The notes below the pieces were generated by a model that saw nothing but the letters and a program-made list of their open reading frames with translations, was not told where the DNA came from and did no database searches. This document shows positions 3,201-56,890 of a stretch of 64,000 bases of DNA, piece by piece (positions within the stretch are counted from its first letter, which is position 1; every line of letters starts with the position of its first letter). The DNA is from a virus: the IMG/VR virus record IMGVR_UViG_3300012006_000002, positions 38,767 to 102,766 of that record; one strand, given 5' to 3'. A program made the translations under genes and the position numbers.

Positions 3201-4808
3201 ACTGTTTTTGCAAGTACTTTGACAAGTGCAGGCATTGTCACAGGAACAGCTTTTTCTTCCACCGGACTAGAGGGCGGTTCAGCCGGAAGATATTTAGGGA
3301 GAACAAGCAACGGCGCTCCCTCTAACGGCACCTACTCTATTGGCGATTATGTTGTTGATACTTCAGGATATGTTCGCGTTTATAATGGAACTGCGTGGAT
3401 TATTGCTGGAGCTAATGCAGGAGACCCAAACACATGGTCAGGTTTGCAAAGTTTTGTGAGATCAAGTCTCAACATAAGTTCAGCAGCAGACACTGTTGTA
3501 AACACGACCATTGGACCCGGATCTGCAACCATTGCTGCAGATTTAAGTCCTAATTATGTTTCTGGAGCAAGATTTGTATCTCCGACATATTCCAATAATG
3601 GCACTACAAAAACAATTGGATCTGCAGTAAACGTCGATATTGCAAATCTTCCCATTGCTGCAACAAATGTTTCTATTACAAATTCATATGGACTTCGTAT
3701 TACGGGTACAGCAACAAACGCTACAAATGCCTACAGTCTTTATGTATCGGGTTCTACTGGATCTACTTTGTCCTATGCAATGTATGTTGCAAGTGGATTA
3801 TCGTATTTTGCTGATAACGTAACTATTGCAAAAATTACTAAAATTACTGATAGCACTGATGCTACTAGCACAACTGCCGATGCTGCTCTTGTCATATCGG
3901 GTGGTCTTGCTGTTGCCAAGAAGCTTTATGCCGGTTCTTTGTACGGCCCGCTTATTGGAACCGTAGGTGCTGGGACAGGAAACGCTAACACGGGAGCGTT
4001 TACCACTCTAACTACTAGCGATACTACCGAAGCAACAAATACTTCTACTGCCTCCGTTGCTATCACCGGAGGTCTTGCTGTTGCCAAGAAAATTTTTGCT
4101 AATCAGTTTAACGGCCCTCTTGTTGGAGCCGTCACTGGAAATGTCACTGGAAATGTGACCGGATTGCAGACCTATACGATTGCAGCAGGCAGTACTGCCG
4201 ACCTTATTTCCGCAACAATGGCTACAAGTGATTTTTTCAGGATTAGAGTAGGGGGAAGCGCTGATGCCGGTTATGCGGAAATAGCAACTGCTGATAATGG
4301 ATCGGAACCAATACATGTCCGTCAGTATACTTGGGGGTATCTTAACGGAAGTTCTGGAGACACTGATTCATGGAAAAACCCAACCCGAACCGCTACTCTT
4401 CTTGATGCATCTGGAAACACTTCTTTTCCGGGAACATTATCAGCAGACAAAATGAGCGGCGGTGCAGCACCACGTTGCTTTATTCCTGCCGGAGCATTTA
4501 CATCACTTAACGCAACGTTGTCAACAGACACTACTACTGGACAATATCAATGGACATTTGCTGCTGCAAATACTGCGTATGTATATTTAGTTGTTCCTGC
4601 AAACTACGGTGGAGGGACATGCTCGTTTACTATTCATGGCACTGCAACGGGTAATCTTACTGCAAAATATGGAACAACATCTGCTGCTGACACAACATTT
4701 ACTTCAGGAGCAACAATACTAGTTGCTAGCACGGCATACTATATTAAATTAACATGTGCCGTATCACAAACGGCAACTTTGACAGGCATGTCAATTGTAT
4801 TTGGATAA
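258..4808 (+). CDS. Large tail fibre / adhesion protein (1516 aa)
   Basis: Very long Ser/Thr/Gly/Ala-rich protein with almost no Cys, as expected of a trimeric beta-rich fibre at the tail tip that contacts the host. About residues 880-940 carry the 'T-P-K-G-S-G-V-V' pattern common in phage fibres. Two copies of a fibre repeat containing GGLAVAKK and ending GPLIG/GPLVG lie near residues 1215 and 1273. The final ~130 residues look like a compact jelly-roll-like tip. The start is GTG with GGAG seven bases upstream (247-250); the nearby ATG at 245 is closed at once by a stop. The next gene starts 15 nt downstream, suggesting an operon. Fibre identity is well supported; receptor specificity cannot be read from sequence. 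Confidence 0.85.
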   Translation: MKPSNPYLGALPLRTSRISSIDVDGKAWDSVLFQQSKSILDFDLNVMQRILQENIAQLSRSIFYSGFTRSSSLTADSNNVYLAVSRINALGNIIRLIDTNGTDGRISIPISYTTNVNTSQYSRIFLWIEIWFQEIIPTTISESFDGSSPVEFKSSVIPYGGGVQNNSTLTNELYDPTFGSETTRRIQTRWRIRQTPAIDPTPVVAEASSISVTANQSGASGTIVVPNPTNLSGTITAAGNTVKMYGVNTSALYPKMILVQTNTTGGNFGSATAGTTATIVSVDKLDGGSTPAGVITIKANGTSSCAVGSVSFTTSGYMHGTTFVVPPLGSQKLITANTTYGFPSETTLGSKTVFGVDQARSDSYNINFANNVSYVSSRLSGITVAASSVSTATLYDTYAYKLSYSYTDISENESLASMTSNTVSNFAGNLANTGLASTTYSNKITWTASTSAKQYYIYRNIFRGQITSIAGNSTTGAVYTLANTNSYALPIGTKVTTTGASVSNYNVTDGIVTASTTNTFTIGSITITTSTTVTNGVAKPDSLPFSSAQLIDTIILSAPATTNSAGVVASGMTATIPASATSVTQSNSAALLNAAGTGSLYSLTGINTTLLKPGMIISSTSKINSGTHRILSITTSSSTNGTVLCYGTSAPTTTGSTATITDLSVSVDANTPVYYDNINSFSESPFTKPSTITVQAVYPTNVAPFETISGSGGDPRVFAQGGRIEVILTGSISASGVLTVAALNTNGYLQVGQRITGIGVPDNVFITGITTAFSSSGNGTYTVSGISSAISSTTLYAWFTPSKTFQRSSKVTGFTELYDPYVYVAGDGSSSDASVLNTVDGRVYGLPLAYVYKDDSSVVLTDLRNVINSLNTGTINATTDITTTNPISGLALRLAASSTGTSLTVSGGGSTNADLSLTPKGSGVVSVATSLAVPAGTATLPSYSFAGQSSTGLYYSLSSAGVSQIGLSVGGTPVVTVSPLSTVFASTLTSAGIVTGTAFSSTGLEGGSAGRYLGRTSNGAPSNGTYSIGDYVVDTSGYVRVYNGTAWIIAGANAGDPNTWSGLQSFVRSSLNISSAADTVVNTTIGPGSATIAADLSPNYVSGARFVSPTYSNNGTTKTIGSAVNVDIANLPIAATNVSITNSYGLRITGTATNATNAYSLYVSGSTGSTLSYAMYVASGLSYFADNVTIAKITKITDSTDATSTTADAALVISGGLAVAKKLYAGSLYGPLIGTVGAGTGNANTGAFTTLTTSDTTEATNTSTASVAITGGLAVAKKIFANQFNGPLVGAVTGNVTGNVTGLQTYTIAAGSTADLISATMATSDFFRIRVGGSADAGYAEIATADNGSEPIHVRQYTWGYLNGSSGDTDSWKNPTRTATLLDASGNTSFPGTLSADKMSGGAAPRCFIPAGAFTSLNATLSTDTTTGQYQWTFAAANTAYVYLVVPANYGGGTCSFTIHGTATGNLTAKYGTTSAADTTFTSGATILVASTAYYIKLTCAVSQTATLTGMSIVFG

Positions 4809-4823
4809 AAGGAAAATTTTTAA

Positions 4824-5660
4824 ATGCCATTTAAATGGAAAGACAAAATTGTTAGTTTTGGAAGTTCAAGTAGTGATCTTGCTGTAAGTGCAGGAACTTC
4901 CTATACAATTCCAGCAAACACAACTTCTCATTGGGTCAATGCAACCATTTCGGGAAACCTCTACGTACATAGAACCGCAGATTTTAGAGTAAGTGGAACT
5001 TTGACTATTGGATCCACGGGAAATATAATTGCAGTAAACAATGTCGCGGGAGAATCTGGGTCAGGAACCGCTTATGCTGCAACGACGGCTGATGACACGT
5101 TGCCCGCTTCTTCTAACGGAGCGAACGGAACTGGTGCTGGTAAAAATTCTCTTAAAATTATGGCAAATAAACTTATAAATAATGGGACTATTAGTGCTAG
5201 TGCGGACTATAACAATACGAATAGCGGAACTGGAGCTAGTGGCGGATTCATATGGATTATTTCTCCTGATATTTCAGGAGGGGCAGGAATAAGGATAAGT
5301 TGCGATGGCGCTGAAGGAGGTCCAGCTTGGGCTAGTGAGAGATATTGCGTAGGCAATGGGGTGTGGTTTGCTAATTGTGCCGGTGGCGGTGATGGGTGCT
5401 ATAATTATGGAGGCTCCGAATATGTGTCGGGAACCTCCGGTAAACACAACTCCTCGTCGGAAGGAGAATACTGTGTTGGTGGCGGGTCTGGACCCAAAGG
5501 AACGTCAGGAACAGCTTCATCTATTCTCATCGTCACTTCTAAGAATCCATCTGGAGGAACAGCAAGCAATCAAACAGTTTCTTTGGATACTACCATGAAA
5601 AGTTTGTCTCTTGGTACAATTCTTTGGTTTGAGGAAAATAAACAATGGAATACACCGTAA
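4824..5660 (+). CDS. Glycine-rich tail fibre-associated protein (278 aa)
   Basis: The first ~80 residues are Ser/Thr/Gly-rich strands (SYTIPANTTSHWVNATISG…), like the start of beta-helical adhesins. Residues ~150-235 are strongly glycine-rich with several Cys and aromatic residues, resembling polyglycine-type adhesin tips. AAGGA lies 10 nt before the ATG. The 3' end overlaps the next gene by 16 nt, so translation may be coupled. Position directly after the long fibre suggests a second fibre, tip or chaperone role. No catalytic motif is visible. Confidence 0.7.
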   Translation: MPFKWKDKIVSFGSSSSDLAVSAGTSYTIPANTTSHWVNATISGNLYVHRTADFRVSGTLTIGSTGNIIAVNNVAGESGSGTAYAATTADDTLPASSNGANGTGAGKNSLKIMANKLINNGTISASADYNNTNSGTGASGGFIWIISPDISGGAGIRISCDGAEGGPAWASERYCVGNGVWFANCAGGGDGCYNYGGSEYVSGTSGKHNSSSEGEYCVGGGSGPKGTSGTASSILIVTSKNPSGGTASNQTVSLDTTMKSLSLGTILWFEENKQWNTP

Positions 5661-12299: not shown

Positions 12300-12386
12300 G
12301 CTGGGATGATGAAATCGGTAGACATACCTGACTTAAAATCAGGAGGCGGACATTCCGTCGTGCGGGTTCGAGTCCCGCTCCCAGCA
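12300..12386 (+). tRNA. tRNA-Leu (anticodon TAA)
   Basis: Acceptor arms GCTGGGA and TCCCAGC pair fully. The anticodon stem-loop CCTGA-CTTAAAA-TCAGG gives TAA; a long variable arm marks class II; the T-arm has the expected GGTTCGAGTCC. The 3' CCA is not fully encoded. Decoding UUA/UUG may help an AT-richer phage in a GC-rich host. Confidence 0.95.
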
Positions 12387-12388
12387 CC

Positions 12389-12434: not shown

Positions 12435-12749
12435 ATGAATAATTGGCGCGAAAATGATGAACGAGTCATCACAGCCAAGGATACTCAAGACGCACTTCGC
12501 ATCATTGCGCTTGCGCAGCGTGGGCATGGTTTGACGAGGTTCAGGATTATTGATGAACCCGGCTCCGGCCCTCTGGTTGACGAAATCAACAAGTGTGCCG
12601 CAGGATGGGGTGTCGGATACGACACGCTAGAGAAGTATCGCCAGTTCCTGAACAAATCCCGCCCCGGCCACGGGCTTCGCATTACCATTGATCCGATGTG
12701 TTACCGGCGAGGCGCAGACTTGATCCGCTCTCTGAAGGGGTTCATCTAG
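12435..12749 (+). CDS. Hypothetical protein (104 aa)
   Basis: Small soluble protein with no recognised family; basic, mixed alpha/beta, two Cys (CAAGWGVGYD and DPMCYRR). AGGAGGAC precedes the ATG. It directly follows the tRNA and its own promoter, and it ends just before the promoter of the structured RNA. Confidence 0.6.
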   Translation: MNNWRENDERVITAKDTQDALRIIALAQRGHGLTRFRIIDEPGSGPLVDEINKCAAGWGVGYDTLEKYRQFLNKSRPGHGLRITIDPMCYRRGADLIRSLKGFI

Positions 12750-12756
12750 ATCGGGC

Positions 12757-12785
12757 TTGACAAGCGTTCCCGCTTGGCTTATAGT
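12757..12785 (+). promoter_or_regulatory. Strong promoter of the RNA gene
   Basis: Consensus TTGACA (12757-12762), 17-nt spacer, TATAGT (12780-12785). The spacer contains a symmetric CAAGCG-TTCC-CGCTTG that could be an operator. Confidence 0.8.
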
Positions 12786-12935
12786 TGAGATGTCGCGTCG
12801 GCATCCCCCTTGCTAACCAGTTGCCTTACTGGGGACGCGACAAGGCAGCGCAGATACAGAGCCTGTAGTTCTGTAGATTCGTTGTCTACCCGCCTGAATC
12901 CCCTTCGGTTTGGAACAAGACCGAAGGGGATTTTG
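12786..12935 (+). ncRNA. Structured non-coding RNA candidate
   Basis: About 150 nt with no credible reading frame lie between a consensus promoter and a strong terminator. Predicted pairings: a 9-bp closing stem TGTCGCGTC (12791-12799) / GACGCGACA (12834-12842) enclosing a CCAGT-TGCCTT-ACTGG hairpin (12817-12832); a TACAG-AGC-CTGTA hairpin (12855-12867); a GTAGA…TCTAC stem (12873-12889). The terminator hairpin forms the 3' end. It matches no RNA class I recognise. It may be a regulatory RNA, a host-RNA mimic or a decoy. Confidence 0.65.
12897..12935 (+). terminator. Terminator of the RNA gene
   Basis: Thirteen-base perfect stem AATCCCCTTCGGT / ACCGAAGGGGATT with a 10-nt loop, followed by TTTTG. 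Another promoter starts 40 nt later. Confidence 0.9.
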
Positions 12936-12973
12936 CTTTCAGTTTCTGACAATTTCCCAGTATTCGCTCGATG

Positions 12974-13002
12974 TTGACGAAACCGTCTGCATTGTGTATA
13001 CT
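12974..13002 (+). promoter_or_regulatory. Promoter with GACGA-NN-CCGTC box for 13054 gene
   Basis: TTGACG (12974-12979), 17-nt spacer, TATACT (12997-13002). GACGAAACCGTC (12976-12987) overlaps the -35 and starts 21 nt before the -10. Confidence 0.75.
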
Positions 13003-28995: not shown

Positions 28996-31900
28996 TACGT
29001 AAATACTTTCATTGCACTTGATATGGAAATTGGAACTTCCATATCTATCGTTCCCCGATCAGAATGAACTCTCACCACACAGGATTCATCGCTAGACTGC
29101 CCTTTTTGATAAACCGTCCAAAGCATTCCTAGTCGAGATGAAACTTTTGTTTCCCTAAGAGACCATAAGACTACTGGATCGGATGTGTCGGTCACTGGCG
29201 CGTCAGGATTGATAATGACGATATCATCACAAATAACGGATGGCTTGCCATCCCTTACCCGAATTTCTCCCTTTACCAGAACCCGCCTGTCTAGGAGTTG
29301 CTGGGGGTTCGACCCACAGACAGAAATATATTTATTTGAAAATAAGACGATATCAATTTGGCCATGCTGATCTTCCATGAGCAAGAAAGACATCATCTTG
29401 CCGTTCTTGGTTTGAAAATCTCGCACGCTCCGTATGACTCCGCCTACAATGGCGGATTGATCTGCGCCCTCCATGAGGTTTTGGGAATTGTGTGTTGCAT
29501 AGTAATCAATGATATGGCGCACATCATCTAGCGGATGCTCTGATAGGTACACGCCAAGCACCTCGTATTCATACTCAAGACGCTGGGACCGGGTCATCGG
29601 GTCGGCACCCAGTAGCCCAAGTGATTGTACGTCACCGTCGCCAAACATGTCAAGTTGCCCAGAGGAGCGAAGCGCCGAACGTTCGCGTGCAGACTCGATA
29701 AATTTTGGCAACGATTCAATCAGGCTTGCCCTCTCGCCAAACTCGTCCAAGGAACCTGCCTTGATGAGATTTGCAACGCCTTTTTGATTAATGACACTAA
29801 GATTTATCTTTGACAGAAAATCATGGAAAGATTCAAATTTTCCCTGAGACACTCTGGCAAATACCAGAGTCTTGCATGCTGTTGAACTCATGCCCGATAC
29901 GGCAGACAGGCCAAACGCAATGGCCTCTGTGCCATCAATTTCTGCGATGGAAAACACATCTGAAGATACATTCACCATAGGAGGAATAACTTGGATTCCC
30001 ATGCGACGGCATTCAGCAATTGATTCGGAAATCTTTTCCTTATTGTTGGATTCGTAGGTCATTACTGTCGTCATGTACTCAATAGAATAATTTGCCTTGA
30101 GGTATGCAGTGATATAAGAAATATATCCGTAGCAGAAAGCATGCGCACGATTGAATCCATATCCGGCAAACGGTGCAATGGTCTCCCAGATATCTGAGGC
30201 CACATCCATGTCATACCCACGCGACATGCTGCCAGAAATGAATTTTTCTTTCTGTTCTTCAATCACACTGATTTGTTTCTTGCCCATTCCTTTGCGGAGA
30301 ACATCTACTTCTCCCCAAGAGAACCCGGCAATCTTCCGGGCAATCAATAAGACCTGATCCTGATACACCACCACGCCGTATGTTTCTTCAAGTATTTCTC
30401 GCAAATCATCATGCAAATACGAAATGTATCGGGAATTGTTCTTGGCAGTTGCAAAGTCCGGAATGTGTTCCATTGGTCCGGGGCGATACAGCGCCACGAT
30501 TGCAGGAAGATCGGTAATCCTTGATGGGCGCACAAGACGCAATGCTCGACGCATTCCTACAGATTCCAATTGGAATACGGCTGCGGTGTCCCCACGCGCC
30601 AAAAGATCGTAGGTTCTCTGGGCAAGGGGATTGCTGTACTCAATGGGAATGTCGCTATACAATTTCTCCCCACTGGTTCCGTACAAATCTATATCGTGTC
30701 TCTGTTTTATGAGTTCGCATACATCTTTGATAATTGTGAGATTTGCGAGGCCAAGAAAATCGAACTTCGAAAGTCCAAGGCTTTCGATAATTCCGGTGGA
30801 GTTGTTGTTGTCATACTGAGTGACAAATGTTCCAGTTTTGCGTCCGGATTTTTCAGGAGGCAACTGTACTGGAACCACTTCATCAAGATCTGTTGCAGTA
30901 ATGAGAATTCCTGCGGCATGGGTTCCAAATCCTCTCGTCAATCCTTCGATTTCTTTGGCCAAGGAAAAGACTTCATTTAATTGTGGATTATTTTTCATAG
31001 CCCGGATAATTTTTGGATCTAGAGAAACTTCATCAAGAGTAATTCCGGGTGTATCAACAAATAGAGAAGTAAAGGAATTGCTTACATCAAAGGGAACTTC
31101 CATGACGCGGGCAATGTCTTTTACCGCAGCCCGTGATCCCAAAGTAAGAAATGTTCCTACATGAGCGACTTTAGTCTTGCCATATTTTTCGGTCACATAC
31201 TCAATGACATCAGCCCTGCGGTTGTCCGCAAAATCCATGTCAATATCCGGCATGCCCTTGCGATCCTTATGAAGGAATCGCTCGAACATGATGTCGTATT
31301 TCACCGGATCAATATCGCAAATACCCAGCGAATAGACGCACAAGCTTCCCGCAACAGATCCGCGAGGAACAGCCATAACCCCTTGGAGACGTGCGAACCG
31401 AACATAATCCTGAACAATAAGAAAATATAATGCATATCCAGTTTCTTTTATAACCGATAATTCATAATCTGCACGTTCTTTATGTCCAGTACTAACTGTT
31501 CCGTAGCGCCAAGCGAGTCCATCGTAGACCTGCTTGGTTAGCCAAGAGTCTGGAGTGTGCCCTTGGGGAATTTCAAACTCCGGAAGCATGACTTTGGAAA
31601 AATCCAATGCAAGATTGCACTGATCAGCCACCCAATCGGTGTTGCGAACTGCTTCTTCGCGTCCCGAAAAATCACGAAGCATCTCCTCTTCGCCACGAAG
31701 GTAATACGCACCATAGGGGGTTATCTTGAATCTCTTCGGATCATTAAGGGTCGATCCGGTTTGAATGGCGAGCATGGCATCATGAGACTTGGCATCCTCA
31801 GGACGCGCATAGTGGCTGTCGCACGCAGCGACCGCCTTCGCCCCAAGCCAGTCGGCTATTCCGAAGAGCGCAGGATTAAGGGTTCGCTGCTTTTCGTGGC

Positions 31901-43821: not shown

Positions 43822-46800
43822 ATGACTATCGTATTTCGCAAAACATCGTCAGGAGGAGGTCGTAGCCTTGGCGTGCCCATCGGGCCAGACGGTACTGGAA
43901 CGACAACAAGACGCGAGATAAAAGACAAGATTTTGCGATTTAATCCTTGGCTTGACACTGCCAAAAGAGAAGAAGTTGCTGATCGTCCCGAATCCCAATG
44001 GGGAACGAAGACAAGAAAATGGGTGAAAAAAGAGCTGAGGGACAATCGCTGGACGCGCGCTCCCTTGCGTGCAAAGACTCCGGGCACGGGAACGACAACA
44101 AGGCGAGAGAGAGCGGCCTTGGGTCCAATGGCAACAGCAACACCTCCTGCGCATATGAGAGGAATAGATGGCTTTACAGCGATCCCTCGGTACACAGGAG
44201 GGGGCACAAGGAGGCCTCGCGACAAGGATCCAGATAGCGATGGCTTCACGAGAAATGTAGGCGGGACCGGACAAACTGACGAAGTAGCACGCGCGGCCCA
44301 CGGATGGGGCCACCCCAGCGACTTGTCTGAATTGGCTGGACCAATAGTATCGCCCGTTCGCGGTCCGGAACCTCGTGCGGACGGCAGGCGTCACGCCGAG
44401 GAGTCCCTGCGATTGCCTCATGGCCATGAATTTCAGGATATTGATGAATATCCACCGAAAGGATTTCCTGCGCATTTAAAGGCGCTGACTCCTGATGGCG
44501 GCGGCAGGCGCGTCGGCGATACACCGAGCGGAATAACATTTTCATACGATTATCATTTATCCCATAGCGACGACGATCCCGATCATATGGATGCCGTCGA
44601 ATCAATGCCTCCGGGGATACGGGCTGATGCATCCGGAAAGAAATTCATTCAAAAGATATGTCTTCCAAATGAAAGCACCGCACGTGGAGAAAATGGGATA
44701 TCAAAAGTTGAAGAGTCTCGAAGAAGCACTGTTGGGGAGACTCTTGCCGACCGGATTTATCGTATCTTTGGCGTTCCTGTTCCGCGTTCGCAAATCTATA
44801 GTTTGAAAACAGGATTGCCCGTTCCTCATGATTACCAGTGGGCACCTAACGAATCGGCAACAAGAATATCTGAACATCTTGGAGATGCTTCAAACACGAT
44901 TGCCGGTGATGATGAGGCGCGTAACGGCGGCGTGATCCGGGGAAGAAACCTTGGCTTGGGTCCAATTGGCCGAAATCGTGGACGCTCCAGTTCTGTCGCC
45001 CGTATGTCCGCTCGCGCTTTGCGGGGAAATTCTTCAGGCACTGACGCTAGTACGGATCGCCCGCATGCCGGATTTAACAGAAACAAGAAGCGTTACGCGG
45101 TTGTTCAAGCACTACTTGGAGGCGGTGATGATCATCACCGCAACAGCATGACTGACGGAATAGCAAAGGATATTGTCTGGAAGGTTGACAATGGGTCTGC
45201 ATTGAAACATACTGCATTTGGTTCAGAAAAAGACGAAGAGGAATGGGGAGTTGTTCACCCAAAAACAATTCTTATTCCTGAAATTATAGATCTTCTGCTG
45301 AATAAAACCATTACCTACAGGGAAGCCTATCGGCAAATGGAACAAGTTGCAAAAATATGGAATCGTCAAAAAGATGCAATTGCGCATCTTTACAAATCTG
45401 ATGAAGATCCTGAGCAGTTTCATATTTTTGCCAGTCGGGCCAACAGCATTGCACGGGCAGTTGATCTTATAAAGAGTCCAAGCGAATTACGCAGGGTGTT
45501 TGAGGCACATAAACAAAGACCATATGATGATCCTGCCCGCGTAGGACCAAAAGGCGAAGTGATTCGGAACAGAAGATTTCCGCGAAAGAAGCGATCAGCA
45601 GGATCTGAATCAGGATTCATGGCGCGGTCAATGTTAATGCTAGCCGTTACACCTTTGAAAATCCTGAGGAAAGCGCGTCCGGCTGTGCAGGCAAATCCTC
45701 CGCCGGACACAAAAGATCTTCCCGAAACAGAACTCAATACTCGGGGAGAAAAAATGTATGGTCCATTGCCACCGTGGCCAAAGAGTGATCCGCATACCAT
45801 AGGTGCCACGACACAAGCTGCTGGCATGTATCCATTTGAGGCAAGGCGACGAGCGGCGCTGGAGCAGGGTAATCCCTCTGCCAGAAGAGATTTCAGGCGG
45901 TTGCCGAGAGCCGTGCGAAGAAGAATGCTTGAGATGCACAACCGTGCGGGGGGGGAAGTTCCTGCCGATCTTCGCGACTTGTATCTCGGAGATGAGTATC
46001 GCCCCGGCCGCACAAAAGTCCAATCAAATCCCGGAACATCGGCCAAGGACAGGACTGTACTTCGAGGATCTCCTCGATGGAATACCGCCCGGATTCTTCC
46101 TGTTACATCAACGGTATTCGGTCCCGGACAGAGAATGAGGGGCAATCGTTTCCATGCCGAAGAAGCATTGAAACTTCCGGATGGTCACGAGCATCAGGAC
46201 ATCGGGGAAACCCCTCCTCACGGATTTCCTGATCACCTCAGGGAGCTTCATACACGAGGTGGAGGAAGAAGACTGCCCATTAGTTTAAGTGGTATCAATT
46301 TTGATAGGAGCAGGCATGAAAGCGCATCAAGATATGATGCAAATGCCAAGAAATACATGGCTACCTTCAAGAGATGGAGGCCGGGTATTCGGGAGACTGC
46401 TGACGGACGAAAGTTCATTCAGAAAATCTGTCTTCCTGCGTCGTCGTCGCATTCTGCGCACATGGCAGGAATGAGTGCTGCCGACAAATCTCGGGAAAAC
46501 ACTGTTCACGAAGCAATTGGAGATCGTTTGTTGCGAGTATTTGGAATTCCGGTTCCGAGAACACAGTTATACAGTCTTGCAACCGGAAAACCCGTTCCTC
46601 ATGGTTATCAATGGAAACCCGACGAGATGGCCACCAGAATATCTGAACATCTTGGACCAGAATCAAAGACAATGGCCGAACATGGCGTTTCTTGGGGTCC
46701 GGACGCTATAGCAGCCACGAATTGGCGAGGAAACAAGAAAAGATACTCCATGGTTGCGGCGTTGTTTGATTCCGATGGTGATGATCATGAGGGAAACAGC

Positions 46801-47256
46801 ATGACCGATGGTGTGCATTTTGATATTCCTTGGAAAGTTGATAATGGAGCAGCGCTGAGTCATGATGCATGGGGAAGAAGGAAGAGACATTGGGTCCGAC
46901 ATGAACCAAAGAGCATATTGCTTCCTCAAATTTATTATGCACTAACATCAGGAAGTATTGACTTTCATCACGCATTTGATCAAATGAAACAAATTGCTGA
47001 AATCTGGGCCAAACAGAAAAATACAATTAAAAAAATATTTGCCGATGAAAAAGATCCAGAGCAGTATCAGATTTTCAAGAGTCGCGCTCAAAGCGTTGCC
47101 CGTGCAGTAAATGTTCTTGGAAACGCACGAAATTTGAGAAGATTGATTGAGCGGCATCAAAGAATAATTCCTCAAGCCAACGCAGGAAAAACAAGCGCAA
47201 AGAGAAAAGTGCGTCGCGCAGGACTTGATTCCAATGCCGATATTGTCAATCCATAA
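43822..47256 (+). CDS. Double kinase-fold (HipA/PI3-4-kinase-like) protein (1144 aa)
   Basis: Two tandem units. Unit 1: a leader with PVRGPEPRADGRRHAEESLRLP (~175-197); an N-lobe Lys in KKFIQKICLP (~273-282); a helix ending ADRIYRIFGVPVPRS; catalytic-loop-like GDDHHRNSMTDG (~434-445); and metal-site-like WKVDNGSAL (~453-461). Unit 2 repeats these: KFIQKICLP (~863), GDDHEGNSMTDG (~986) and WKVDNGAAL (~1007). The K / D-x-H-x2-N / D-N-G order is that of HipA and PI3/4-kinase-like folds. Unit 1 ends FMARSMLML, the C-terminal tag of the two following paralogues, so the gene looks like a fusion of two. The basic N-terminus repeats GTGTTTRRE. Substrate and activity are unknown. Confidence 0.65.
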   Translation: MTIVFRKTSSGGGRSLGVPIGPDGTGTTTRREIKDKILRFNPWLDTAKREEVADRPESQWGTKTRKWVKKELRDNRWTRAPLRAKTPGTGTTTRRERAALGPMATATPPAHMRGIDGFTAIPRYTGGGTRRPRDKDPDSDGFTRNVGGTGQTDEVARAAHGWGHPSDLSELAGPIVSPVRGPEPRADGRRHAEESLRLPHGHEFQDIDEYPPKGFPAHLKALTPDGGGRRVGDTPSGITFSYDYHLSHSDDDPDHMDAVESMPPGIRADASGKKFIQKICLPNESTARGENGISKVEESRRSTVGETLADRIYRIFGVPVPRSQIYSLKTGLPVPHDYQWAPNESATRISEHLGDASNTIAGDDEARNGGVIRGRNLGLGPIGRNRGRSSSVARMSARALRGNSSGTDASTDRPHAGFNRNKKRYAVVQALLGGGDDHHRNSMTDGIAKDIVWKVDNGSALKHTAFGSEKDEEEWGVVHPKTILIPEIIDLLLNKTITYREAYRQMEQVAKIWNRQKDAIAHLYKSDEDPEQFHIFASRANSIARAVDLIKSPSELRRVFEAHKQRPYDDPARVGPKGEVIRNRRFPRKKRSAGSESGFMARSMLMLAVTPLKILRKARPAVQANPPPDTKDLPETELNTRGEKMYGPLPPWPKSDPHTIGATTQAAGMYPFEARRRAALEQGNPSARRDFRRLPRAVRRRMLEMHNRAGGEVPADLRDLYLGDEYRPGRTKVQSNPGTSAKDRTVLRGSPRWNTARILPVTSTVFGPGQRMRGNRFHAEEALKLPDGHEHQDIGETPPHGFPDHLRELHTRGGGRRLPISLSGINFDRSRHESASRYDANAKKYMATFKRWRPGIRETADGRKFIQKICLPASSSHSAHMAGMSAADKSRENTVHEAIGDRLLRVFGIPVPRTQLYSLATGKPVPHGYQWKPDEMATRISEHLGPESKTMAEHGVSWGPDAIAATNWRGNKKRYSMVAALFDSDGDDHEGNSMTDGVHFDIPWKVDNGAALSHDAWGRRKRHWVRHEPKSILLPQIYYALTSGSIDFHHAFDQMKQIAEIWAKQKNTIKKIFADEKDPEQYQIFKSRAQSVARAVNVLGNARNLRRLIERHQRIIPQANAGKTSAKRKVRRAGLDSNADIVNP

Positions 47257-47272
47257 AATAAGGAATACATAA

Positions 47273-48781
47273 ATGCCAAAAAAAACGACTTCCATGTCGC
47301 CGGACAAAGCAGCTATACATCAAGCGGTGAGAGCGCAGTTGGATCAAGCACGAAAAGTGGCCCTTCCACGGGAAGAGACGCTTACTCCAAGAAGATTGAG
47401 GGCAGCGTTGCGTGGCCCTAATGCGTCGACAGACAAAAGTACCCCGTCTTCAATGTCTGTGCAAACACCTTCGTGGTGGCAGTCGAGTCCAAGCCAGACA
47501 GCATCCACCACGCCGAGTCCAACGAGACCATCGCGGGGGGCACGTGTAGCGGGAAGGCGGGGAGGATCTGATCCCGACTCGCAATTTGCGCAGGGCAACC
47601 GATGGGCGGTTCCGGGAAAGCCACCGAGAGCTGGTGCGCTAACTTCTCCTGTTCGCGGGCCAGAACCGCGCGCGGACGGCAAACGTCACGCCGAGGAATC
47701 CCTGCGATTGCCTGAAGGTCATGATTTTCAGGATATTGATGAATACCCCCCCAAAGGGTTTCCGTCTCATTTGAAGGAACTGACTCCTGATGGCGGCGGC
47801 GAGCGGCTTCCCATAGAGCCGGGGGGAGTAACGTTCAGCGAGCGTTTTCACGAAACCAACAGCGGAGACGATCCTGAACACATGGCTAATTTTCATGCCA
47901 TGAAGCCGGGTATCAGAAAAACTGCTGCGGGAAAATTGTTTGTGCAAAAGATAGGCCTTCCATCTTCGTCAAGAAGGGAAAGCCCAGTTGATGCGTCCAG
48001 AAAATCCACGAATGGTGAAGTCATTGCCGACCGTATTTTCCGGATTCTGGGGGTTCCAGCTCCACGGTCGCAAGTGTATAGCATGAAGACCGGATTACCT
48101 GTTCCTCATGATTACCAGTGGGCACCCGGAGAAGCATCAACGCGAATATCAGAGCATGTTGGCAAAGATTCCGGAACAATAGGTGATTTAGCATATAGAC
48201 ATGGTGATCATATTAGAGAAGATTGGAAAAGCAACGAAAAAAGATACGAGGTTGCAAAAGCATTGCTTGCCCATGGGGATAATCATGAATATAATACCAT
48301 GCTTGACGGGAAGCATATGGATGTTCCTTGGAAAGTGGATAATGGCTCTGCATTGAAATATGATGCGTTTGGAGGAACCAAGCACGAGAGTGTATGGGGC
48401 AAAGTGCCAGCCAGTGATGTCATATTTCCTCAACTCCTTGAATCAGTTATAAATAAAAAAATAACGCCAAGAGAGGCATACCGGCAAATGGAAGGTATCG
48501 CCAAGATATGGCGTCGTCACCGGGGAGCCATTGAGAAGATCTACAAAAACGAAGAAGATCCCGAGCAGTTCAAGATCTTTGCCAGTCGCGCCGATAGCAT
48601 TGCAAGAGCTGTTGACATGTTCAAGGGTCCGAGAGAGTTTGCCCGAGCGCTGAACCACAATTTAGAACAAGGATTCGGCCCGTTACAGGACCATGCACCA
48701 AAGCGCAAGCCCAAGGGATCAAAGTTCACCGTGGGATCGGAGTTCATGGCCCGTTCATTCAGGTGGGGCATGAACGTCTAG
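47273..48781 (+). CDS. Single kinase-fold paralogue (502 aa)
   Basis: One unit of the same family: PVRGPEPRADGKRHAEESLRLPEGHDFQDIDEYPPKGFP (~124-162), an N-lobe Lys in KLFVQKIGLP (~222), ADRIFRILGVPAPRSQVYS (~247-265), GDNHEYNTMLDG (~334) and PWKVDNGSALK (~352). The first ~110 residues are Ser/Thr/Pro/Arg-rich and disordered. It ends GSEFMARSFRWGMNV. AAGGAA lies before the ATG, and the gene is 16 nt after the double-unit gene. It could modify host or phage targets (AMP or phosphate transfer) after injection; inference only. Confidence 0.65.
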   Translation: MPKKTTSMSPDKAAIHQAVRAQLDQARKVALPREETLTPRRLRAALRGPNASTDKSTPSSMSVQTPSWWQSSPSQTASTTPSPTRPSRGARVAGRRGGSDPDSQFAQGNRWAVPGKPPRAGALTSPVRGPEPRADGKRHAEESLRLPEGHDFQDIDEYPPKGFPSHLKELTPDGGGERLPIEPGGVTFSERFHETNSGDDPEHMANFHAMKPGIRKTAAGKLFVQKIGLPSSSRRESPVDASRKSTNGEVIADRIFRILGVPAPRSQVYSMKTGLPVPHDYQWAPGEASTRISEHVGKDSGTIGDLAYRHGDHIREDWKSNEKRYEVAKALLAHGDNHEYNTMLDGKHMDVPWKVDNGSALKYDAFGGTKHESVWGKVPASDVIFPQLLESVINKKITPREAYRQMEGIAKIWRRHRGAIEKIYKNEEDPEQFKIFASRADSIARAVDMFKGPREFARALNHNLEQGFGPLQDHAPKRKPKGSKFTVGSEFMARSFRWGMNV

Positions 48782-48809
48782 CATTAATACCACGACAGGA
48801 GATATATCA

Positions 48810-51098
48810 ATGCCAAAGAACACATCATCCGATCCGGATTATAATGGAGGTGGTCCGGGCTTGGGTGGGATGACTCCTCCAAGTCACTGGTCCGGGCATT
48901 CTCCGCCTTCAGGGGGACAGACATCGCCGGAACAAGCGGCGGCTGGTCATATTGCCGCAGCGTCGCATCCATCTATCAGTGGCGGAGTGCCGCCCCTGAA
49001 CTCAAGGACTGAGCGATTAGGACGTGTCAACGATGCTCTTGTGGCACGGAACGCGGCGTGGGCCAAACGTGGTGCGGGAGACTCACCTGAGACTCGCTCA
49101 AAAACGCGAGATGATCTTGCGTCACTACCTGACACCTTCTACGCTCCGGAATCGCAGTGGGGGAATGCCACAAGAAAGGAGCTGAAAGAAATAGTCAGGG
49201 TTAACCGTGCGGAGAATCTTGGCAGGCGTTGGGGAACCTTGACGGGGAGCTCGGCACGACGAAGGGGATTCAGGCGGGTGGATGATCTTGAGGCCCGTTA
49301 CGGAAGAGCAGGCCAGAGAGATTGGGGCGCGAGGACAAGAGCCATGGCCCAAGAAATGCTCGATCATGAAAGAGGTATGCCGTCAGCGAGACAGGCCGCG
49401 GTGCGAGCAAAGATAAAGCGGGAAAACAAAATCGTAGCCGCCTTGCAGCAGAGAGATTATGCAGTGGGCAAACGTCGTGCGGGAGATTCGCCTACCCCCG
49501 GCACCAAGACGCGAGATGATCTTGCAGCGCTTGTACGTCAGGGCGACTTGCGACGCGACGCGCCCCCTGACGCGATAAGGGCAGCAAAACGTAATGCGAG
49601 AGTTCTTCGCGCCAAGAAAATTGGCGCTGCTGCCAGAGCGCGTCGCCGTGCTGCGGGAAAACCAGCGGATGCGATGGATCTCAGTCGAAACAGGCGGGTA
49701 CGGCATGTAGATGCTCTTGAGGCGGAGCATGCAAGAGGGACTACTTGGGGTTCGGAAACAAGGCGCATGGCGAGGCAAAAAGTCAGTGACGAGAGCCGTG
49801 CGGATAGATTGTGGCAGATAGCCGCGGCACGCAGGCAAGGGATAACGACCCCCGCGCAGAGGGCACCTGTAGCGAGAGGGCGTCGAGGCGGTTCTGATCC
49901 CGACTCGCAATTTGGCAATGATCGGCGCAATGGCGGTCGTCCGGGAAGGGCATCGGCCCTAACCTCACCTGTTCGCGGGCCAGAACCTCGCGCGGACGGC
50001 AGGCGTCACACCGAGGAGTCCCTGCGGCTACCTGCTGGTCATGAATTTCAGGATATTGACGAAATCCCGCCCAAGGGATTTCCGGCGCATTTGGACGAGG
50101 TAACTCCCAAGGGCGGCGGCGAGCGTCTGCCCATAGACCTCAGTGGAGTCACATTCAAGCAGTACCATCACGAGGGCCGCAGCGGAGACGATCCTGAACA
50201 CATGGCTAATTTTCATGCCATGACTCCGGGGGTCAGGAAGACCGCTGCAGGAAAGTTATTTGTACAAAAGATAGCTCTTCCCGGCAAACGTGGATCTGAA
50301 GCGGTGGATAGTTCCAGAAAGTCTACAAATCAGGAAATGATTGCTGACCGGATTTTCCGGATTCTGGGAGTTCCAGCTCCACGGTCGCAAGTGTATAGCC
50401 TGAAGACAGGATTGCCCGTTCCGCATGATTATAAGTGGTCACCGGGAGAAGCATCCACCCGCCTAGCCGAACATCTTGGCAAGGATTCCACAACGGTGGC
50501 TAGCGCGGATCGGAGACATCAGAGCGCATGGGAAGGGCATGAACGACGATACGCTGTGGCAAAAGCATTGCTCGCTCACGGTGACGATCATCTGAACAAT
50601 ACCATGTTTGATGGAAAGCACATGGACATTCCGTGGAAAGTGGATAATGGCTATGCATTGAAATATAATGCATTCGGAGGCGAAAAAGGTTCAGATATAT
50701 GGGGGGAAGTTTCTCCTCGATCTGTGTTGTTTCCCCAGCTCTATCAAATGATTGGAGAAGGAATCGTAACTCCAAGAGAGGCATACCGGCAAATGGAAGG
50801 TATCGCCAAGATATGGCGTCGTCATGGCGGAGCCATTAGGGAACTGTATAAAAATGACGACGATCCAAAACAAGCCAAGATCTTCGCCAGTCGTGCGGAA
50901 AGCATTGTAAGAGCTGTTGACATGTTCAAGGGTCCGAAAGAGTTTGCTCGGGCGATGAGAACACATTTCAGGGCGTATGATCGGGGTGACCGCGCAACTA
51001 CGAGCGATTTGATTCCAAAGCGCAAGCCCAAGGGATCAAAGTTCAGCACGGGATCGGAGTTCATGGCCCGTTCCTTCAGTTGGGGCATGAACGTCTAG
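48810..51098 (+). CDS. Kinase-fold paralogue with repeat-rich N-terminus (762 aa)
   Basis: The C-terminal ~400 residues repeat the unit: PVRGPEPRADGRRHTEESLRLP (~389), KLFVQKIALP (~481), GDDHLNNTMFDG (~590), PWKVDNGYALK (~607), and the end GSEFMARSFSWGMNV. The N-terminal ~380 residues are Arg/Ala-rich with several short W-G-x2-T-R repeats (QWGNATRKELKE, DWGARTRAMAQE, TWGSETRRMARQ), also seen once in the 1144-aa protein (QWGTKTRKWVKK). They may bind DNA or scaffold proteins. ACAGGAGA precedes the ATG. Confidence 0.65.
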   Translation: MPKNTSSDPDYNGGGPGLGGMTPPSHWSGHSPPSGGQTSPEQAAAGHIAAASHPSISGGVPPLNSRTERLGRVNDALVARNAAWAKRGAGDSPETRSKTRDDLASLPDTFYAPESQWGNATRKELKEIVRVNRAENLGRRWGTLTGSSARRRGFRRVDDLEARYGRAGQRDWGARTRAMAQEMLDHERGMPSARQAAVRAKIKRENKIVAALQQRDYAVGKRRAGDSPTPGTKTRDDLAALVRQGDLRRDAPPDAIRAAKRNARVLRAKKIGAAARARRRAAGKPADAMDLSRNRRVRHVDALEAEHARGTTWGSETRRMARQKVSDESRADRLWQIAAARRQGITTPAQRAPVARGRRGGSDPDSQFGNDRRNGGRPGRASALTSPVRGPEPRADGRRHTEESLRLPAGHEFQDIDEIPPKGFPAHLDEVTPKGGGERLPIDLSGVTFKQYHHEGRSGDDPEHMANFHAMTPGVRKTAAGKLFVQKIALPGKRGSEAVDSSRKSTNQEMIADRIFRILGVPAPRSQVYSLKTGLPVPHDYKWSPGEASTRLAEHLGKDSTTVASADRRHQSAWEGHERRYAVAKALLAHGDDHLNNTMFDGKHMDIPWKVDNGYALKYNAFGGEKGSDIWGEVSPRSVLFPQLYQMIGEGIVTPREAYRQMEGIAKIWRRHGGAIRELYKNDDDPKQAKIFASRAESIVRAVDMFKGPKEFARAMRTHFRAYDRGDRATTSDLIPKRKPKGSKFSTGSEFMARSFSWGMNV

Positions 51099-51100
51099 CA

Positions 51101-52025: not shown

Positions 52026-55000
52026 ATGAACAATATCGAACATACCCGACTCGTTGCAATGGAGATGATGAATCCGCTGTTCAAGATTCTTGGTGAAGCA
52101 TCGCGCAAGAACGGAATGGCGTACTATGCGCGGCGGAACAAGAATCTGACGAAGGTGTTTGCGTCAATCAGGAAATTTCCTACTGGAAAGTTTGTGCCTG
52201 CCAGTGGAGTTTATGAGGGGGAACATGAAGGGGTCTTTGGCAACGACCGGAGTTTGTACTTACATGTCCGTCCAAGTCCTCAGCGTATAACCCATGTTGA
52301 TGGCGTGAACACGAGACTTCATCTAGACGATGAGGCAGACCGTCCAGTTCATCCATACATCGAATATATGCAGGTCAAGCCGGGAGCAGCCAATCCCGGC
52401 CCAGAGCATGCCCAGCAAGTATATGAAGCGCTGCATCGTCAGGGATATACCGGCGATACCATGAAGTTCCATGCGCCTACGGATGAAGATGGTCGGCGCG
52501 ACAAGAACGGGCTTAACAGGCGTCAGAGGTTATACCGTCCCTTTGTCCAAGGATGGAAGGACTTCATCCGGTCGAAGGGCAACAAGCAATACCCACCAGA
52601 GAAGTATGAGAACCTTATTAATATACATTTTGAGCGATCATTCGGGGGTCCGCTGTTCAAGATCCTTGGGGCACAAGCGCGCGATCAGGGAATGGACCGT
52701 CATCCACATGTGGCCGATGCGTTTGACTCTTCGGAAAAATATCCTACTGGCCACTTTGCCCCTTTTGGCGGTCATAGTGAGTGGGATGATAGTGCCAACC
52801 ATTGGGATGGACATGAGGGAATCTTCGGCAAGGACCGGGATCTTTATCTTCATGTCAAGCCTGCTCCGCAGCATGCCACTCATGTTGATGGAGAGAACAC
52901 AATGCTTGATCTGGATGACGAGGAAAACCGCCCAATTCATCCGTACATCCAGTACCTGCAGGTCAAGCCGGGAGCAGCCAATCCCGGCCCCGAGCATGCC
53001 CAGCAAGTATATGAGGCGCTCCATCGGCAGGGATATACCGGCGATACCATGGATTTCTTTGCACCTTCGGATTCGGATGGTCGGCGCGACAAGAACGGGC
53101 TTAACAGGCGTCAGAGGTTATACCGTCCCTTTGTCCAAGGCTGGAAGGACTTCATCCGCGCAAAGGGGTACAAGCAATACCCGATGGCAAAATCGTTGAC
53201 CAGACGGTTTTGGGAAAGGAAACCACAGGTTGGTGCTGCGCCACCTCCGGAGCCTGCGCAGGACAGGCCGAGTCTTGCCAGCCGCATGCTTGGAAAGGTC
53301 AAGGTCACGAGACGTTCTGGCTTGGAGGGAGCATCGGCAATTGCGTCAAATCCCAAGGCGGCGGGAAAGATAGCGCTTGACATGGCTGCTCCCGGAGCAT
53401 CCGCCATCGCCAGTGGTGTGCCCGCTCTTCCCAAGGTCGCGGGAGGGACCGATCTTTCCTCGCTGGTTCATCGCGTCGGTTCGAATCCGTCTGCGGAAAC
53501 ATGGGTCTCGTCAGGATTAGGAATAGTGCGTGGCGCTACAACCGGGTTGCTGGGAGTGCTAGTTCCCGGCGGAAGCAAGTCAATAGCAAGTTCTTCGGTA
53601 ACGGCAGGTTCGGGGGTCATGGACGGAATCAAGAAACTGGGAAGCGATCCTGATTTTGCTAGCGGGGCATCCGAATGGTGGCCAAGGAAGAAGGGTGCCC
53701 CGCATGCTGTTCTTCAGCATGCAATACGATTGGCTGCGGCTGGAAAGCAGATAACCAGAAGAGGGTTGTCTGATGCATTGGTTAGAGAAGAAATGACGGC
53801 ACCAATTGTCAGATCTCCTTCCGGAACATTTCATGACATACCTGACCTCATTGGTCCAAAAGTTTCCAATAGTAGCGGAATGTCCGTGTATGTTCTTCCC
53901 GCAGAACATCAAACCAGACATCTTGGCCCAATAGCCCACTATGGAAGCGACGAGAAATTCGGATCTGTCATACAGTTGAGTGGTCATGATGCTGAAGCAG
54001 AAGATTATAAAAAAATGTCAGAAATCATGCGTCCGATACTGGCAGCAGACAAGGCAAACCCCTATGTGGGAGGCATCACCGATCTCACGGGGAATATGGA
54101 TCACAAGAGAGGAAGGCAGATTGCGGGTACAGCGCAGCCTTGGGAAGAGGCAGAGCCGATTTCCTTTGATGGTCCGGAACACGCTTTTGAAGAATTCGAC
54201 AGAAAGCATAATGAAAACGGGGTTGGAAAGTCAATTGTCAAAAAAGGGGAAGCAGAGAAAGAAAGGCGTGCAAAGAAGAGAGAAAAAGAAGAGCAAGAAA
54301 AGCGCGCAAAAAAGCCGAGATATCGTGATGACGATATGGCATCGCGGATGGCCGCTCAAGAGCGCATGCGTACCGCACAGGACAGGATCAGGCCAGCCAA
54401 TCGCTCACGCCTTGAGCGATCATTGTCGTCCATGGAAAAAAGCGCCGCATGGCAACGCAAGGAAGGCAAGAACCCCAAGGGCGGACTCAACGCCAAGGGG
54501 CGGGCATCAGCCAAGCGCGAGGGCCACAATCTCAAGGCTCCGGTGAAATCGGGCGACAATCCTCGCCGCGCATCGTTTCTTGCCAGAATGGGCGGAAGTC
54601 CCGGCCCCGAATATGATGAGCATGGGAAGCCAACCAGATTGTTGCTGGCCCTTCGTGTGTGGGGAGCATCGAGCAAGGCGGATGCGAAGCGAAAGGCAGC
54701 GGCCATGAGCGAGCGGCTCAAGAAAAAGAAACTTGCAAAAGGCCGGGGCGAAGATGCGCGGCAAGACCATTTATTTTCCGGCGCTAAAGGATTTAGTGAA
54801 CGCGATTATCCAACGGGGCAAATGACGAAAACTTCGCAGCTAGGTGTATATGGTATGTCGCATATAGGTGTATTTGGAGAAAAGAGACATATTCTCGTAG
54901 AATCCCACAAAGCATACCCCGATAGCACTCACATTGAATGGGTACATATAGAACCCGGTACAAAAGTTGAACCACATCATATTACGGAGATTTTTGGAGC

Positions 55001-55835
55001 ATTGCATGACGCGGGGTACACGAAGCCGATGAGTTGGAGTGCGCTAGAAGACAATGATGAAAGATTTTCTGATCGGCAATCTTCCCGCAGGGATCGTCTT
55101 TTCCGTCCGCTGGCAGCTCAATGGGACAAATTTGTTGCGGCGAAGCAAGCCAAGATGAGCAAGGCAGAGCTAGACGCAAAAAAGCCAAACCATAATACCT
55201 CCGGCCCCCGTTCCCCCCGCTGGCAGCCCGCAGTTGGCCCAACGCTCACGCCACGCCAGATTGCCATTCAACAGCGAAGCGCCCAAAAATTGGCGGAACT
55301 TGCCGCCCTTCCGGCCGGATCTCCCCAAGCGAGAGAAGCGACTGTGCCCAAGCGATCACGGACACCGTTGATGCCAAGACGCTCGCAAGGGCTTCTCGCA
55401 TCATCCGCTGATGGCCATGTCTCTGTCGCGGAAGCCGCAAGAATACTCGGCATACCGCACTCGGCAGTGACGAAACATATCGAACGAGGTACGTTCCCCG
55501 CAAGATATGAAGCATCCAAGCGCACCATAGATACGAGTCATCCCCACTTCATCGCAGTCCGCGATGGCCTCCGGCAAGGCAAGACCATGAAGACCATTCT
55601 TTATGATCTTGAGGAGAAGCCAGTAACCGAGGAGGAAAAGAAGGACTCCTATGGCGAAATGTACGGCTATCCGCAAGGGAAACGCCGCTACCGCTCCTCA
55701 CGCACACGGACCGGCACGTCCAGACAAGCACGCCTCGGCCAGTACCAGAGAATCTCCCCGGTGACTGGCAAACCCAGCAAGAGTACGAGTCTGGGTCGCC
55801 CTCCCCTCGCTGATCCCTACGCGCTGTTTGATTGA
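52026..55835 (+). CDS. Giant repeat protein with DUF6321-like and HTH segments (1269 aa)
   Basis: Three copies of a ~130-170-aa unit lie near residues 15-188, 207-385 and 921-1042. Copies 1 and 2 share PLFKILG…, FGxDRxLYLHV(R/K)P, AANPGPEHAQQVYEALHRQGYTGDTM and RRQRLYRPFVQGWKDFIR; copy 3 is divergent (YPTGQM, RRDRLFRPLAAQWDKFV). A charged coil (~735-800) follows. Residues ~815-888 match the phage DUF6321 pattern (NPKGGLNAKGRASAKREGHNLKAPV…RRASFLARMGG). A MerR/Xis-type helix-turn-helix (SVAEAARILGIPHSAVTKHIERG, ~1134-1156) and a basic tail with MYGYPQGKRRYR end the protein. A mix of structural and DNA-binding parts suggests a virion or injected protein. Confidence 0.6.
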   Translation: MNNIEHTRLVAMEMMNPLFKILGEASRKNGMAYYARRNKNLTKVFASIRKFPTGKFVPASGVYEGEHEGVFGNDRSLYLHVRPSPQRITHVDGVNTRLHLDDEADRPVHPYIEYMQVKPGAANPGPEHAQQVYEALHRQGYTGDTMKFHAPTDEDGRRDKNGLNRRQRLYRPFVQGWKDFIRSKGNKQYPPEKYENLINIHFERSFGGPLFKILGAQARDQGMDRHPHVADAFDSSEKYPTGHFAPFGGHSEWDDSANHWDGHEGIFGKDRDLYLHVKPAPQHATHVDGENTMLDLDDEENRPIHPYIQYLQVKPGAANPGPEHAQQVYEALHRQGYTGDTMDFFAPSDSDGRRDKNGLNRRQRLYRPFVQGWKDFIRAKGYKQYPMAKSLTRRFWERKPQVGAAPPPEPAQDRPSLASRMLGKVKVTRRSGLEGASAIASNPKAAGKIALDMAAPGASAIASGVPALPKVAGGTDLSSLVHRVGSNPSAETWVSSGLGIVRGATTGLLGVLVPGGSKSIASSSVTAGSGVMDGIKKLGSDPDFASGASEWWPRKKGAPHAVLQHAIRLAAAGKQITRRGLSDALVREEMTAPIVRSPSGTFHDIPDLIGPKVSNSSGMSVYVLPAEHQTRHLGPIAHYGSDEKFGSVIQLSGHDAEAEDYKKMSEIMRPILAADKANPYVGGITDLTGNMDHKRGRQIAGTAQPWEEAEPISFDGPEHAFEEFDRKHNENGVGKSIVKKGEAEKERRAKKREKEEQEKRAKKPRYRDDDMASRMAAQERMRTAQDRIRPANRSRLERSLSSMEKSAAWQRKEGKNPKGGLNAKGRASAKREGHNLKAPVKSGDNPRRASFLARMGGSPGPEYDEHGKPTRLLLALRVWGASSKADAKRKAAAMSERLKKKKLAKGRGEDARQDHLFSGAKGFSERDYPTGQMTKTSQLGVYGMSHIGVFGEKRHILVESHKAYPDSTHIEWVHIEPGTKVEPHHITEIFGALHDAGYTKPMSWSALEDNDERFSDRQSSRRDRLFRPLAAQWDKFVAAKQAKMSKAELDAKKPNHNTSGPRSPRWQPAVGPTLTPRQIAIQQRSAQKLAELAALPAGSPQAREATVPKRSRTPLMPRRSQGLLASSADGHVSVAEAARILGIPHSAVTKHIERGTFPARYEASKRTIDTSHPHFIAVRDGLRQGKTMKTILYDLEEKPVTEEEKKDSYGEMYGYPQGKRRYRSSRTRTGTSRQARLGQYQRISPVTGKPSKSTSLGRPPLADPYALFD

Positions 55836-56073: not shown

Positions 56074-56110
56074 GGCCTCTTGAGTGGCCGGTCAGGCCAC
56101 TCAAGAGGCC
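56074..56110. terminator. 16-bp perfect hairpin at the boundary
   Basis: GGCCTCTTGAGTGGCC pairs fully with 56095-56110 around the loop GGTCA. There is no T-run, so it is either a bidirectional or factor-assisted terminator for the giant upstream operon, or a structural site. Confidence 0.55.
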
Positions 56111-56238
56111 TGAGACGGGCCGGGGCCGCGTCCCTTGATGTTGACATATTGCACATATAGTGCCCTTACCCGAACTGCACCTGTGCCTCCGTGAGACCCC
56201 CTCTGGGATACACCCCCCAAACCGCCACACCACCCACA

Positions 56239-56439
56239 CCGGGGCCGCGCCCCTCTATCCACCCCCGACCGGCACACCGGGGCCGCGTCTCTGGAAGGGT
56301 GGTGGGCCTATACCATTCCCTGCGGGCGGCGATGCCGTTCCGGTCTGTACCATTCTCTAATGACAACGATGCCGTTTGTTTGTGTTAGTCTATAGCAGAT
56401 CGGTCGCGGGGGTAGGATCCGCGATCACAGGAGCTCCCG
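56239..56439 (+). promoter_or_regulatory. Array module M0 (promoter of HNH gene 1)
   Basis: CCGGGGCCGCG boxes at 56239 and 56277 (38 bp apart); two successive TACCAT-N14-GATGCCGTT units (56308-56336 and 56348-56376), the second followed after 9 nt by TAGTCT (56386-56391). Leader hairpin GGTCGCGG (56402-56409) / CCGCGATC (56419-56426), then AGGAG. The -35 region (ACAACG) is not consensus. Confidence 0.75.
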
Positions 56440-56841: not shown

Positions 56842-56860
56842 TCCCGCACTCCGCCCGAGG

Positions 56861-56890
56861 AACCCCGGCTTCGGCCGGGGTTTTGTTTTG
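56861..56890 (+). terminator. Terminator after array gene 1
   Basis: AACCCCGGC-TTCG-GCCGGGGTT followed by TTGTTTTG; a UUCG-type tetraloop. Confidence 0.9.

What the first reader, a model, noticed from the sequence alone, without database searches (positions are those of the whole stretch)
12757..12935. Orphan structured RNA with consensus promoter and terminator
TTGACA-17-TATAGT leads into a ~150-nt segment with a 9-bp closing stem, three further hairpins and a 13-bp terminator, without a reading frame. The spacer carries a symmetric CAAGCG-TTCC-CGCTTG, so it may be regulated. Promoter quality is among the best in the window, suggesting high expression. I do not recognise the class.
Basis: partly seen in the sequence, partly recalled or inferred. 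Interest (0 to 1): 0.78.

Follow-up and report, generated by a model that had tools for sequence, protein, structure and literature searches.

The report
Orphan phage small RNA gene
A bacteriophage carries a short stretch between two genes that looks like a stand-alone small-RNA gene (promoter, folded RNA, terminator); it is probably a private regulatory RNA of this one phage, perhaps aimed at one of the phage's own messages, but nothing like it was found in any relative and no transcript has been shown.

Summary
A TTGACA-17-TATAGT promoter (12757-12785) is followed by about 150 nt without a usable reading frame. The segment folds far better than shuffles (z = -7.3; -5.1 without the terminator) and ends in a strong intrinsic terminator (16 bp, not 13). 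It matches no Rfam family. It was not detected in seven related phage records (some are fragments), nor in the phage, plasmid, IMG/VR or GTDB collections as far as the searches could see. It lies in a ~1-kb accessory block (small minus-strand ORF, tRNA-Leu, orphan 104-aa ORF, RNA), placed between genes that are nearly adjacent in relatives. Stem conservation is therefore untestable.

New lead: 27 contiguous nt (12881-12907: linker plus 5' arm of the terminator) can pair with codons 151-159 of a 762-aa phage gene at 49260-49286. No shuffle of 200 matched this, but a few unrelated short matches of equal strength exist elsewhere in this genome, so the realistic chance level is about 1-2%.

Best reading: a lineage-specific, stand-alone phage sRNA acting by base-pairing; mechanism and target are inferred. 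The spacer palindrome is unremarkable (3.4% of promoter-like sites have one). Phage sRNAs are a known kind, so interest is moderate to low.

The parts
12757..12785 (+). sigma-70-type promoter TTGACA-17-TATAGT
   Evidence: 11 of 12 consensus positions; same layout as the family-conserved promoter of the 183-aa gene
12761..12776 (.). 6-4-6 inverted repeat CAAGCG-TTCC-CGCTTG overlapping -35 and spacer; possible operator
   Evidence: only copy in the record; such repeats occur in 39 of 1155 promoter-like sites, so weak
12791..12940 (+). predicted small RNA, about 150 nt (start inferred from the -10 box)
   Evidence: fold z -7.33; no reading frame between start and terminator
12791..12842 (+). domain 1: 9-bp closing stem with two hairpins (12800-12814, 12817-12832), a three-way junction
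   Evidence: MFE and centroid agree
12843..12887 (+). domain 2: long interrupted hairpin
   Evidence: MFE and centroid agree
12881..12907 (+). segment complementary to the 762-aa gene's message: 27 contiguous pairs (22 of 23 identical in the core 12885-12907, rest G.U); includes the linker 12888-12896
   Evidence: chance control
12896..12933 (+). intrinsic terminator hairpin, 16 pairs, 6-nt loop, T-rich tail
49260..49286 (+). candidate target site, codons 151-159 of the ORF 48810-51098 (762 aa, no known family)
12300..12388 (+). tRNA-Leu (UAA), part of the same accessory block
12435..12749 (+). orphan 104-aa ORF directly upstream, part of the same accessory block
   Evidence: no relative or family found
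12974..13002 (+). separate promoter of the downstream 183-aa gene, TTGACG-17-TATACT
   Evidence: TTGACA at matching place in relatives that lack the RNA

Best explanation
12757-12940 is a stand-alone small-RNA gene of a phage, carried as lineage-specific cargo in a variable insertion site. Host RNA polymerase with its sigma-70-type factor would start at about 12791 and stop at the terminator, giving a compact ~150-nt RNA (three-way-junction domain, long hairpin, short single-stranded linker, terminator hairpin). Most likely it acts in trans by base-pairing through the linker. The best candidate target is the phage's own mRNA for the 762-aa protein (48810-51098): the linker ACCCGCCUG would nucleate on the message, and pairing would then spread into the 5' arm of the terminator hairpin, 27 contiguous pairs in all, lowering stability or translation of that message. 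Shown: promoter and terminator sequences, the exceptional fold, absence of a usable reading frame, no detectable copy in seven relatives, and the complementarity. Inferred: that it is transcribed, that it pairs in vivo, and that pairing represses. I give about 0.5 to a stand-alone base-pairing regulatory RNA and about 0.3 to this particular target.
For: Promoter 11 of 12. Fold z -7.33 and -5.07. Composite unit once in 503 kb and 0 in 3 shuffles. The downstream gene keeps its own TTGAC-17-TA promoter in relatives that lack the RNA, so the RNA is unlikely to be a leader. Complementarity: ungapped score 46 against a shuffled mean of 27.2, sd 2.4, maximum 36 in 200; 27 contiguous pairs against a maximum of 23 in shuffles. 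Opening only the linker costs 3.6 kcal/mol and the linker alone pairs with -18.3 kcal/mol; the joint fold of RNA and target is 15.5 kcal/mol better than the two folded apart.
Against: No homologue, hence no covariation or conserved seed. In this genome about three other unrelated short matches of equal strength turn up among ~360 segments, so the complementarity has a realistic chance level of 1-2%. The site lies deep in the coding sequence, not at the ribosome-binding site, and most of the pairing must displace the stable terminator stem (opening cost 34.4 kcal/mol for the whole segment). Host and RNA chaperones are unknown. No transcript data.
Confidence: 0.5

Rival explanations
1. It is the structured 3' untranslated region and terminator of the 104-aa gene's message (12435-12749), and the promoter-like site is incidental or minor. 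Any small RNA would be a processed 3' end.
For: The 104-aa ORF ends 8 bases before the promoter and the only strong terminator after it is the one at 12896. Promoter-like sites are only slightly more frequent here than in shuffles, 46 against 40.8.
Against: An 11-of-12 promoter exactly between stop codon and structured segment, together with a strong terminator, occurs once in 503 kb and not in 3 shuffles; the strong fold starts right at the predicted transcription start.
Confidence: 0.22
2. It is a structural or protein-binding RNA of the phage (decoy, scaffold or counter-defence RNA) that acts through its fold rather than by base-pairing.
For: Most of the RNA is tightly folded, with a well-defined three-way junction (MFE frequency 0.34 in the ensemble); it travels with accessory genes and a tRNA, as counter-defence cargo often does (inference).
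Against: No resemblance to any Rfam family; no conservation of the fold can be shown; this reading leaves the 27-nt complementarity unexplained.
Confidence: 0.15
3. It is a conditional leader (attenuator or riboswitch) of the downstream 183-aa gene.
For: It lies upstream of that gene in the same direction and ends in a terminator.
Against: The gene has its own promoter after the terminator, with a counterpart in relatives that lack the RNA; the 16-bp terminator has no competing antiterminator in the predicted ensemble.
Confidence: 0.05
4. The DNA is not transcribed as an RNA gene; the fold and promoter are remnants of the acquired block, and the 23-nt match is a short copied fragment.
For: Private to one record, no conservation; similar short isolated copies occur elsewhere in the genome.
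Against: A fold at z -7.3 with intact promoter and terminator is hard to keep without selection.
Confidence: 0.08

Closest known systems
STnc6030 antisense RNA of prophage BTP1 (review PMC12197685, section 4)
   Same: Phage RNA complementary to the message of a phage protein (tailspike), lowering transcript stability and translation.
   Different: STnc6030 is antisense to the tailspike gene of a prophage; here the RNA lies ~36 kb from the candidate target, with only 27 nt of complementarity, and the role is untested.
c4 RNA of phages P1 and P7, and sar RNA of P22 (PMC12197685, sections 2 and 7)
   Same: Small structured phage RNA that represses another phage message through short complementary segments.
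   Different: Those act at translation initiation of ant mRNA and control lysogeny; here the site is at codons 151-159 and there is no sign of lysogeny control. No match to any Rfam family.
PreS of phage lambda (PMC12197685, section 2)
   Same: A phage sRNA gene located between phage genes, acting by regulating a message.
   Different: PreS depends on Hfq and acts on host dnaN; here the host is unknown and the best candidate target is the phage's own.

Membership tests
stand-alone (intergenic) bacterial/phage sRNA gene | own promoter | tested here: met
   TTGACA-17-TATAGT, 11 of 12; by sequence only, no mapped start
stand-alone (intergenic) bacterial/phage sRNA gene | Rho-independent terminator | tested here: met
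   16-bp hairpin with T-rich tail, 12896-12933
stand-alone (intergenic) bacterial/phage sRNA gene | no translated reading frame | tested here: met
   no ATG/GTG frame between start and terminator; the TTG frames run through the terminator or lie on the other strand
stand-alone (intergenic) bacterial/phage sRNA gene | a discrete transcript | not testable with these tools
   needs RNA sequencing or a Northern blot
trans-acting base-pairing sRNA | complementarity to a target message beyond chance | tested here: inconclusive
   0 of 200 shuffles reach it, but the real-genome control gives a 1-2% level
trans-acting base-pairing sRNA | conserved seed or compensatory change in relatives | tested here: inconclusive
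   no homologue found in seven relatives
any of the 4227 Rfam families | covariance-model score at or above gathering | tested here: not met
   only the tRNA matched; best sub-threshold hits are chance-level
leader or riboswitch of the 183-aa gene | shares its transcript with the downstream gene | tested here: inconclusive
   terminator plus a separate downstream promoter whose counterpart exists without the RNA in relatives; not measured

The most novel reading that the evidence does not exclude
A new class of phage structured RNA (three-way junction, hairpin, toehold linker, terminator) in which the terminator hairpin itself stores the antisense sequence: a target message invades through the linker and strand-exchanges with the terminator stem, controlling one of the phage's own large coding sequences in trans.
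Probability: 0.12. Interest if true: 0.6.

Novelty: new member of a known kind. Interest (0 to 1): 0.33.

Why it matters
If transcribed, it adds a stand-alone sRNA gene to an uncultured phage group that has no DNA-level match among 50,697 sequenced phage records (for the stretches searched), and shows such an RNA travelling with a tRNA and orphan genes as cargo at a variable site. The 27-nt complementarity gives an immediately testable target, which most metagenomic RNA candidates lack. It does not by itself change what is known about phage RNA regulation.

Tried and rejected
Rfam at gathering and at E up to 10: nothing beyond the tRNA. DNA similarity to sequenced phages and plasmids: nothing useful, only two 28-nt hits at E 0.2 in one Rhizobium plasmid. 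Exact-pattern scans of IMG/VR with the closing stem, the domain-1 loops and the linker, and of GTDB genomes with domain-1 sequence: none. Single-sequence covariance model against own record and relatives: only itself and its own palindromic terminator; two full-length hits at E 0.5 and 6.6 in L025 lie in a GC-rich cassette array and pair poorly, rejected as chance. Relatives by the 104-aa ORF: none. Operator significance of the spacer palindrome: rejected as weak, 39 of 1155 promoter-like sites have one. Relatives of the AAA protein in GTDB genomes to learn the host: one distant hit (24% identity) in a deltaproteobacterial MAG, not informative. Family of the 762-aa target: no match in Pfam, PHROGs, NCBIfam or PDB sequences.

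Full report
Observation. The segment at 12757-12935 was read directly. A TTGACA-17-TATAGT promoter (11 of 12 consensus positions) is one of eight sites of that quality in the 102.8-kb record. The predicted RNA, about 12791-12940, folds at -75.4 kcal/mol against a shuffled mean of -44.5 (z -7.33), and at z -5.07 when the terminator is left out; no shuffle of 200 does as well in either test. A composite search for a promoter of at least 10/12, then a non-coding stretch, then a strong terminator finds this unit and no other in 503 kb of this phage family, and none in three shuffled versions of that sequence.

Surroundings. The window is the right-hand 64 kb of a 102,766-base virus record. The RNA sits between an orphan 104-aa ORF (12435-12749) and a 183-aa gene (13054). 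Upstream lie tRNA-Leu(UAA) (12300-12388), a 91-aa minus-strand ORF and an SLT-type transglycosylase. Seven related records were found through the 183-aa gene and the neighbouring AAA ATPase (49-71% protein identity). In L006, L007 and L040 the transglycosylase gene is followed almost at once by the 183-aa gene; in L004 another ORF lies between; L010 and L011 lack the transglycosylase there. No tRNA gene lies in the fetched neighbourhoods of L004-L007, L010 and L011, and none of the seven has the RNA at this place. So the small ORF, tRNA, 104-aa ORF and RNA form a ~1-kb accessory block in a variable site.

Relatives of the RNA. A covariance model made from the single sequence finds itself at 193 bits but nothing credible in the relatives' records or in the rest of the own record. 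DNA searches and pattern scans of phages, plasmids, IMG/VR and GTDB contigs were also negative. The collection scans used exact patterns and would miss a diverged copy; the DNA searches reach down to roughly 65-70% identity; several relative records are fragments. There is no second sequence, so no test of covariation is possible.

Probably not a leader. The 183-aa gene has its own promoter downstream of the terminator (TTGACG-17-TATACT). A TTGACA with 17-nt spacing to a TA-rich hexamer lies at the same place in the relatives that lack the RNA (in L040 the -10 box is poor). This argues against an attenuator for that gene and suggests that this promoter layout is used in the family.

A candidate target. 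The RNA's 12885-12907 is complementary to 49260-49282 at 22 of 23 positions, the remaining one being a G.U pair; four more pairs, three of them G.U, extend it to 27 contiguous pairs. The site is in sense orientation within a 762-aa ORF (48810-51098), codons 151-159, a protein without a known family. Shuffled RNAs never come close: best score 36 against 46, longest contiguous pairing 23 against 27, in 200 shuffles. A control with real segments is less generous. After setting aside paralogues and repeats, about three other unrelated short matches of equal or better strength occur among ~360 segments of the window, for example 4787-4815 and 30290-30312. I therefore take the realistic chance level as 1-2%, rather than the far smaller value that the shuffles suggest. 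Energetically the linker is easy to open (3.6 kcal/mol) and can nucleate (-18.3 kcal/mol). Pairing over the full segment must displace the terminator stem (34.4 kcal/mol) but is still favoured in the joint fold, by 15.5 kcal/mol.

Mechanism and rivals. The best-supported explanation is a stand-alone phage sRNA acting by base-pairing. The closest described phage RNAs are STnc6030, c4, sar and PreS (PMC12197685). The chief rival is that this is the structured 3' end of the 104-aa gene's message. A leader function and a purely structural, protein-binding RNA are less likely but not excluded. The spacer palindrome that suggested regulation is unremarkable: 39 of 1155 promoter-like sites contain such a repeat.

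Verdict. This is a real and well-formed candidate sRNA gene, so far private to one phage record, with one testable target and no proof of transcription. As a kind it is known; as a member it is new. Interest 0.33.

Noticed in passing
window 56100-64000; L025 1-1800: Array of unrelated small ORFs (~80-180 aa), most preceded by a repeated 200-260-nt regulatory spacer (CCGGGGCCGCGTC motifs, GGTACAG/CTGTACC inverted arms, TGTTAGTATA or TGTTACACT promoter-like site, GGGAGGCCACC before ATG) and followed by their own terminators. A relative (G001) carries a similar array on the other strand sharing the GACGCGGCCCCGGC motif. It looks like a cassette system for accessory genes.
   Followed up: partly
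window 44300-51100: Family of tandem paralogous large proteins (among them 502 and 762 aa) with repeated segments and motifs such as HMDVPWKVDNG; no family match; one distant relative (29%) in G001.
   Followed up: partly
window 52026-55835: 1269-aa ORF with a strong internal duplication (91% over 154 nt).
   Followed up: no
L040 885-914: The promoter-like site before the 183-aa gene homologue has a perfect 7-4-7 inverted repeat (AACGGTA-CCGC-TACCGTT) in its spacer.
   Followed up: no
window 4787-4815 and L014 12547-12575; window 30290-30312 and 63383-63405; window 5042-5066 and L015 350-374: Short, isolated near-identical stretches (23-29 nt) between unrelated places of the genome, as strong as the RNA-target match; origin unknown.
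   Followed up: no
L022 16834-19128 and L023 26-1234: The 184-kb relative G006 has a cluster of eight tRNA genes elsewhere in its genome, including tRNA-Leu(UAA) on the opposite strand; G001 has five tRNA genes.
   Followed up: no
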